Assembly (NCBI GenBank): GCA_013791885.1
Contig: VMSZ01000069.1
Span: forward strand, 1-49,998
Direction: 5' to 3'
DNA length: 49,998 bases
Source of the DNA: Sulfurimonas sp.
GTDB taxonomy: Bacteria; Campylobacterota; Campylobacteria; Campylobacterales; Sulfurimonadaceae
Shown: positions 6,808 through 21,524 of the stretch, in pieces
Position numbering within the stretch: the stretch's first letter is position 1
Layout: every line of letters starts with the position of its first letter
Program-made: the position numbers and the translations under genes
The notes under the pieces: generated by a model
Told to the model about the DNA's origin: nothing
The model's database searches: none
What the model saw: only the letters and a program-made list of their open reading frames with translations

Positions 6808-6925
6808 TTTCACATGCCTGTGAAAAGCTTTAGGGGATGGCAAGGACAATTTTGTCCTTGCCATCTAAATGGGCTTTATTCTGTACTTTGAAATGGCACA
6901 GAACACACAAGTGCTCATTTAGATG
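6808..6925. ncRNA. Three-hairpin intergenic element, copy 1
   Basis: Stem A pairs TTTCACA (6808-6814) with TGTGAAA (6819-6825). The linker AGCTTTAGGGG follows (6826-6836). Stem B pairs 6836-6849 with 6852-6865 over 14 bases. Stem C pairs 6863-6874 with 6913-6924 and shares three bases with stem B, so B and C may alternate. It ends GTATAA. It lies between convergent doxX-like and pssA genes, so it could act as a two-way terminator, a processed 3' RNA or a small repeat element. Copy 2 is at 21434-21519. Confidence 0.6.
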
Positions 6926-6931
6926 TATAAG

Positions 6932-21433: not shown

Positions 21434-21519
21434 CATAAAACTTGTTTTTATGTAGCTTTAGGGGGTTGTAGGGACCTTTATGTCCCTGCCACTATAATGG
21501 GCTTTGCTCATTATAGTGT
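21434..21519. ncRNA. Three-hairpin intergenic element, copy 2
   Basis: Stem A pairs CATAAAA (21434-21440) with TTTTATG (21446-21452). The linker AGCTTTAGGGG is at 21454-21464. Stem B pairs GTAGGGAC (21468-21475) with GTCCCTGC (21482-21489). Stem C pairs 21490-21502 with 21506-21518 over 13 positions around a TTT loop. It ends GTATAA like copy 1. Linker, GGGCTTT and end are conserved, while all three stems differ from copy 1 and remain paired. It lies between the convergent permease gene and nusA. Confidence 0.65.
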
Positions 21520-21524
21520 ATAAA

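What the first reader, a model, noticed from the sequence alone, without database searches (positions are those of the whole stretch)
6808..6925. Structured three-hairpin element with covarying stems (copy 1)
This element and 21434-21519 share AGCTTTAGGGG, GGGCTTT and a GTATAA end, in the same order with three stems. All three stems have different sequence in the two copies yet stay paired (for example stem C ACTATAATG there, ATCTAAATG here). That is direct covariation. Here stem C has a 38-base loop and shares three bases with stem B, so a switch between forms is possible. Both copies lie between convergent genes.
Basis: seen in the sequence. Interest (0 to 1): 0.66.

Follow-up and report, generated by a model that had tools for sequence, protein, structure and literature searches.

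The report
Dispersed folded mobile DNA relic
The two look-alike hairpin elements are worn copies of a small, gene-less jumping DNA element (a MITE) scattered tens of times through Sulfurimonas and related genomes; its folded three-hairpin core is kept by paired compensating changes even after the ends needed for jumping have decayed.

Summary
The element at 6808-6931 and its partner at 21434-21524 belong to a family with about 37 copies in this genome, copies in 29 of 60 relatives searched, and 67 in a complete genome of another family of the order. Named public hits are all Campylobacterota.
[quoted passage not shown] It has terminal inverted repeats CTGAnnTTACGCACTT...AAGTGCGTAAnnTCAG. It makes a 7-bp target duplication (21 of 70 full-length copies exact, 0.9 expected), with target TTANTAA. 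The 'GTATAA end' is the worn start of the right repeat.
Covariation of stems A, B and C is very strong. G-T wobbles outnumber A-C mismatches on the + strand, so a folded single strand, probably RNA, appears to be what is preserved.
In this genome only 5 of 30 copies keep a recognisable left end, yet 97% of stem pairs hold; the structure-based search favours such copies.
Location between convergent genes is not a rule (9 of 30), and no switch is supported.
The mobilising transposase was not found and the core's function is inferred. It is a new member of a known kind.

The parts
6808..6825 (+). copy 1, hairpin A (TTTCACA TGCC TGTGAAA)
   Evidence: 209 of 226 copies have a hairpin here, 51 different 5' arms, own arms 98% Watson-Crick against 57% between copies
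6826..6836 (+). copy 1, conserved unpaired motif AGCTTTAGGGG
   Evidence: invariant in the five-copy alignment A3
6836..6865 (+). copy 1, hairpin B (GATGGCAAGGACAA / TTGTCCTTGCCATC)
6862..6925 (+). copy 1, hairpin C with conserved GGGCTTT/GCTC apex, opened by a private 35-base loop insert at 6878-6912
6925..6931 (+). copy 1, worn start of the right terminal inverted repeat (GTATAAG for GTGCGTAAnnTCAG)
   Evidence: the right-end match of this copy is only 7 of 13, close to random
21434..21452 (+). copy 2, hairpin A (CATAAAA CTTGT TTTTATG)
21454..21464 (+). copy 2, conserved motif AGCTTTAGGGG
21465..21492 (+). copy 2, hairpin B (GTTGTAGGGAC / GTCCCTGCCAC)
21490..21518 (+). copy 2, hairpin C (CACTATAATGGGC TTT GCTCATTATAGTG)
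21519..21524 (+). copy 2, worn start of the right terminal inverted repeat (TATAAA)
   Evidence: right-end match 9 of 13

Best explanation
The two window elements are old, end-worn copies of a non-autonomous transposable element (MITE) family of Campylobacterota. Shown: the intact element is mostly 142-145 bp, with 116-bp and 123-bp subfamilies. It has inverted repeats CTGAnnTTACGCACTT at both ends, no gene, a 5' hairpin Z in the long form, and a core of hairpin A, TAGCTTTAGGGG, hairpin B and hairpin C. Insertion duplicates a 7-bp target, consensus TTANTAA. Shown: the core stems covary strongly, and non-canonical pairs favour G-T over A-C on the + strand. Inferred: a DDE-type transposase acting in trans, no longer (or never) encoded in this genome, moved it. 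TTANTAA contains TAA and TTA, so insertions may often fall at stop codons. Inferred: the core folds as RNA in read-through transcripts as a compact block that makes insertions tolerable or stabilises 3' ends, and is preserved for that reason after the ends decay.
For: Terminal repeats and full-length copies. Target duplication: 21 of 70 full-length copies with an exact 7-mer against 0.89 expected (maximum 6 in 2000 shuffles), 36 of 70 with at most one mismatch against 4.4; 8-mer 3 against 0.05, 9-mer 0; consensus TTANTAA. A homologous locus without the element: L086 against L189; most genus genomes lack an element at the nusA gap. Copy number: about 37 own, 29 of 60 relatives, 67 in G039. A second, unrelated 269-bp element in G039 has like ends CTGATGTTACGCAGT and 7-bp duplications. 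Covariation. Strand test: G-T 48 against A-C 17 in B and C (p=0.00015, fixed wobbles excluded), 16 against 5 in A under symmetric scoring. Ends worn in G000: 5 of 30 recognisable 5' ends and 9 of 30 3' ends. No ORF: longest 21 aa.
Against: No autonomous element with matching ends was found. Own-genome copies are equally common in both orientations within tandem genes (9 and 9), which gives no support to transcription of one strand only. The copies were found with a structure-based model, so badly broken cores are under-counted; seeking the ends instead, two of four own-genome elements had a broken or deleted core. No expression data.
Confidence: 0.9

Rival explanations
1. A cis-acting or small regulatory RNA family with a host function, dispersed by duplication; mobility would be incidental.
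For: Very strong covariation, + strand G-U preference, the core retained at an orthologous position (nusA 3' gap) in G000, G007 and G135 with changed but paired stems.
Against: Terminal inverted repeats, 7-bp target duplications and patchy copy number (0 to 67 per genome) are marks of a transposable element. No fixed association with a gene or orientation. No Rfam match.
Confidence: 0.2
2. REP/REPIN element mobilised by a RAYT (Y1 transposase).
For: Own genome has one Y1 transposase; REPs are intergenic palindromes in many copies.
Against: That gene is flanked by its own different repeat family. G021 (19 copies) and G035 (22 copies) have no Y1 match (G035 only 68% complete). Target duplications with TIRs are not expected of Y1 transposition.
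Confidence: 0.03
3. The stems stay complementary because of DNA-level quasi-palindrome correction (template switching), with no selection on a folded strand.
For: Can copy one arm onto the other; many different arm sequences in hairpin A (51 kinds).
Against: It should not distinguish strands, yet G-T exceeds A-C on the + strand (48 to 17 and 16 to 5), and two wobble positions are kept as G-U. The covariance-model alignment may lean slightly towards G-U; the hairpin A count does not.
Confidence: 0.15
4. Bidirectional intrinsic terminators between convergent genes.
For: Stable hairpins; both window copies lie between convergent genes.
Against: No T-run follows hairpin C in the copies displayed; only 9 of 30 own copies lie between convergent genes.
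Confidence: 0.05

Closest known systems
Bacterial MITEs (Nezha, Correia/NEMIS, ERIC, RUP, BOX, QMITE2; reviews PMC10969869, PMC3049150)
   Same: Small, gene-less, TIRs, short target duplications, AT-rich intergenic sites, stable folded transcripts; QMITE2 has 7-9 bp duplications (PMC10969869).
   Different: Different ends and target (CTGAnnTTACGCACTT, TTANTAA), Campylobacterota host range, and a core of separate hairpins with invariant unpaired motifs and many-fold covariation that persists after the ends decay. The paper searches made here returned no description of it.
IS4 family, ISPepr1 subgroup (possible mobiliser; Table 1 of PMC2266710)
   Same: 5'-CT ends (YT-AA-YTT---A; about 6 of 8 positions fit), 7-8 bp direct repeats, preference for AT-rich targets.
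   Different: No such insertion sequence with these ends was found; PF01609 has no match in the own genome, and the PF01609 loci examined have other ends.
REP/BIME/REPIN with RAYT
   Same: Many intergenic palindromes per genome.
   Different: TIRs and target duplications; no correlation with Y1 transposases.

Membership tests
MITE | terminal inverted repeats | tested here: met
   CTGAnnTTACGCACTT...AAGTGCGTAAnnTCAG in full-length copies; worn in the two window copies
MITE | target site duplication | tested here: met
   7 bp, 21 of 70 exact against 0.89 expected
MITE | small size, no transposase gene | tested here: met
   mostly 115-145 bp; longest ORF 21 aa
MITE | multiple copies in intergenic regions | tested here: met
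MITE | related autonomous element with the same ends | tested here: inconclusive
   not found among Y1 and PF01609 loci or near solitary ends; other transposase families not searched
REP/REPIN (RAYT-mobilised) | cognate Y1 transposase in genomes with many copies | tested here: not met
   G021 and G035 have 19 and 22 copies and no Y1 match
Known Rfam RNA family | match at gathering score | tested here: not met
   only a tRNA in the window; nothing meaningful at relaxed thresholds
Functional structured RNA | transcribed and folded in the cell | not testable with these tools
   covariation and strand asymmetry only

The most novel reading that the evidence does not exclude
A transposable element whose core has become, or carries, a functional structured RNA: tens of dispersed copies per genome lose mobility but keep a covarying A-B-C fold with invariant motifs (AGCTTTAGGGG; GGGC/GCTC apex) that an unknown RNA-binding protein or RNase recognises, forming a genome-wide post-transcriptional network in Campylobacterota.
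Probability: 0.2. Interest if true: 0.7.

Novelty: new member of a known kind. Interest (0 to 1): 0.42.

Why it matters
It defines an abundant, apparently undescribed MITE family of Sulfurimonas and relatives, with ends, target and anatomy precise enough to annotate it. Because many diverged copies keep covarying stems, it is a good natural test of whether bacterial MITEs carry RNA structures under selection or are shaped only by DNA-level palindrome repair.

Tried and rejected
RAYT/REP origin: Y1 searches show no correlation with copy number. Mobiliser hunt: solitary ends have no transposase beside them; PF01609 loci, best-scoring 30 or fewer of each search, lack these ends; IMG/VR has no exact end; phages none, plasmids one Sulfuricurvum kujiense hit without annotation. 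Switch idea: the alternative fold is confined to copy 1 and caused by its private insert. Terminator idea: no T-run seen, context not convergent. First alignment A1 had two copies on the wrong strand and was discarded.

Full report
CHECK. The finding is accurate. Stems A, B and C of copy 1 (6808-6925) and copy 2 (21434-21518) are present as described, and both fold much better than shuffled sequence (z -6.6 and -4.3). Only these two copies lie in the window. Rfam has no such family.

FAMILY. An exact two-motif pattern finds six copies in the 2.5 Mb genome and none in the reversed control. A covariance model of stems B and C finds about 37 places at E<=1e-3. 29 of 60 relatives searched (own genome included) carry copies, patchily: 0 to 22 in other genomes of the same genus and 67 at E<=1e-5 in G039, a complete genome of another family of the order. 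A scan of 84,980 species for an exact core returned more than 116 contigs, and all the titles listed are Campylobacterota: Sulfurimonas, Sulfuricurvum, Sulfurovum and unnamed relatives. Contig lengths and positions shared with that scan place the window's genus in Sulfurimonas (inference).

COVARIATION. Over 30 own-genome copies 97.0% of stem cells are paired (shuffles 86.9%), with 67 double changes against 17. Over 53 copies it is 128 against 30. Stem A, not in the model, has 51 different 5' arms among 209 copies; own arms are 98% Watson-Crick, arms from different copies 57%. Among non-canonical pairs G-T exceeds A-C on the + strand: 48 to 17 in B and C with the two fixed wobbles excluded, p=0.00015, and 16 to 5 in A under symmetric scoring. 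DNA-level palindrome correction should not prefer one strand, so a folded + strand, RNA or single-stranded DNA, is the likelier target. The covariance-model alignment may lean towards G-U; the stem A count does not.

WHAT IT IS. Better-preserved copies extend further: CTGAnnTTACGCACTT, hairpin Z, TTCTC, hairpin A, TAGCTTTAGGGG, hairpin B, hairpin C, GTGCGTAAnnTCAG. Of 70 full-length copies with distinct flanks, 21 have an exact 7-base direct repeat immediately outside the ends (0.89 expected, maximum 6 in 2000 shuffles), 36 with one mismatch allowed (4.4 expected); the consensus is TTANTAA. Length classes are 142-145, 115-117 and 123 bp. A homologous locus without the element shows the join (L086 against L189). 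The longest ORF is 21 aa. These are the marks of a MITE as defined in PMC3049150 and PMC10969869. G039 holds another, 269-bp element with like ends and 7-bp duplications but unrelated sequence inside, so one enzyme probably moved several passengers.

MOBILISER. Not found. Y1 transposases do not track copy number, and the one in this genome has its own repeat family. PF01609 transposases are absent from this genome, and the loci examined in relatives have other ends. The end consensus, 7-8 bp duplication and AT-rich target resemble the ISPepr1 subgroup of IS4 (PMC2266710). That is a lead, not an assignment.

STATE OF THE COPIES. In this genome only 5 of 30 copies keep a recognisable left end and 9 a right end, while 97% of stem pairs hold. 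The copies were collected by structure, so the contrast is biased. When ends were sought instead, four own-genome elements turned up and two had broken or deleted cores.

ORTHOLOGOUS COPY. Copy 2 lies between a transport permease gene and nusA. The same gap in 126 genus genomes carries the element, same orientation, in about ten; G007 and G135 share stem sequences, while G000 differs from them in A and C with pairing intact. This may be one old insertion or a repeatedly used site; other repeats also occupy the gap.

CONTEXT. Thirty own copies: 9 convergent, 18 tandem (9 each way), 3 divergent, all intergenic (by a simple longest-ORF rule). Many end within a few bases of a stop codon, as expected if TTANTAA is hit at TAA stops (inference).

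MECHANISM. Most likely: moved by a trans-acting DDE transposase with 7-bp staggered insertion (target duplication shown, enzyme inferred); the folded core is tolerated or useful when transcribed (inferred). Confidence 0.9 that it is a MITE family; about 0.2 that the core has a dedicated RNA function.

Noticed in passing
L323, L324, L326, L353, L368, L369, L373, L389, L397, L411, L412 (gap 3' of nusA in relatives): A second structured intergenic repeat, GAGGCAAGCTTTAGTGGCC...GCGAAGTAAAAGGGACTTTATTCCTTTTACGGACTAATTA, sits in the same permease-nusA gap in many Sulfurimonas genomes.
   Followed up: no
L462 2675-2943, L463 2763-3031, L464 2601-2869, L465 2747-2985, L466 472-740 (genome G039): A GC-rich element of about 240-270 bp with ends CTGATGTTACGCAGT and 7-bp target duplications, full of hairpins, present at least eight times.
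   Followed up: partly
L007 1441-1965 (-) and flanks 1210-1440, 2000-2270: RAYT-like Y1 transposase gene of the own genome surrounded by its own palindromic repeat family GGAAGCGATGG...CCATCGGTTCC, upstream of a nifH-like gene.
   Followed up: partly
L247 1465, L230 7889, L086 1618 (-), L139 2909 (-): An identical short palindromic insert, CGAAGTTTCTTTAGAAAAACG, sits in hairpin C of several copies; a similar reversed insert sits in hairpin A of L135.
   Followed up: partly
L338, L344, L360, L363, L414: Perfect palindrome TTGGCATGTGGAAATTTCCACATGCCAAG near the nusA 3' end in several Sulfurimonas genomes.
   Followed up: no
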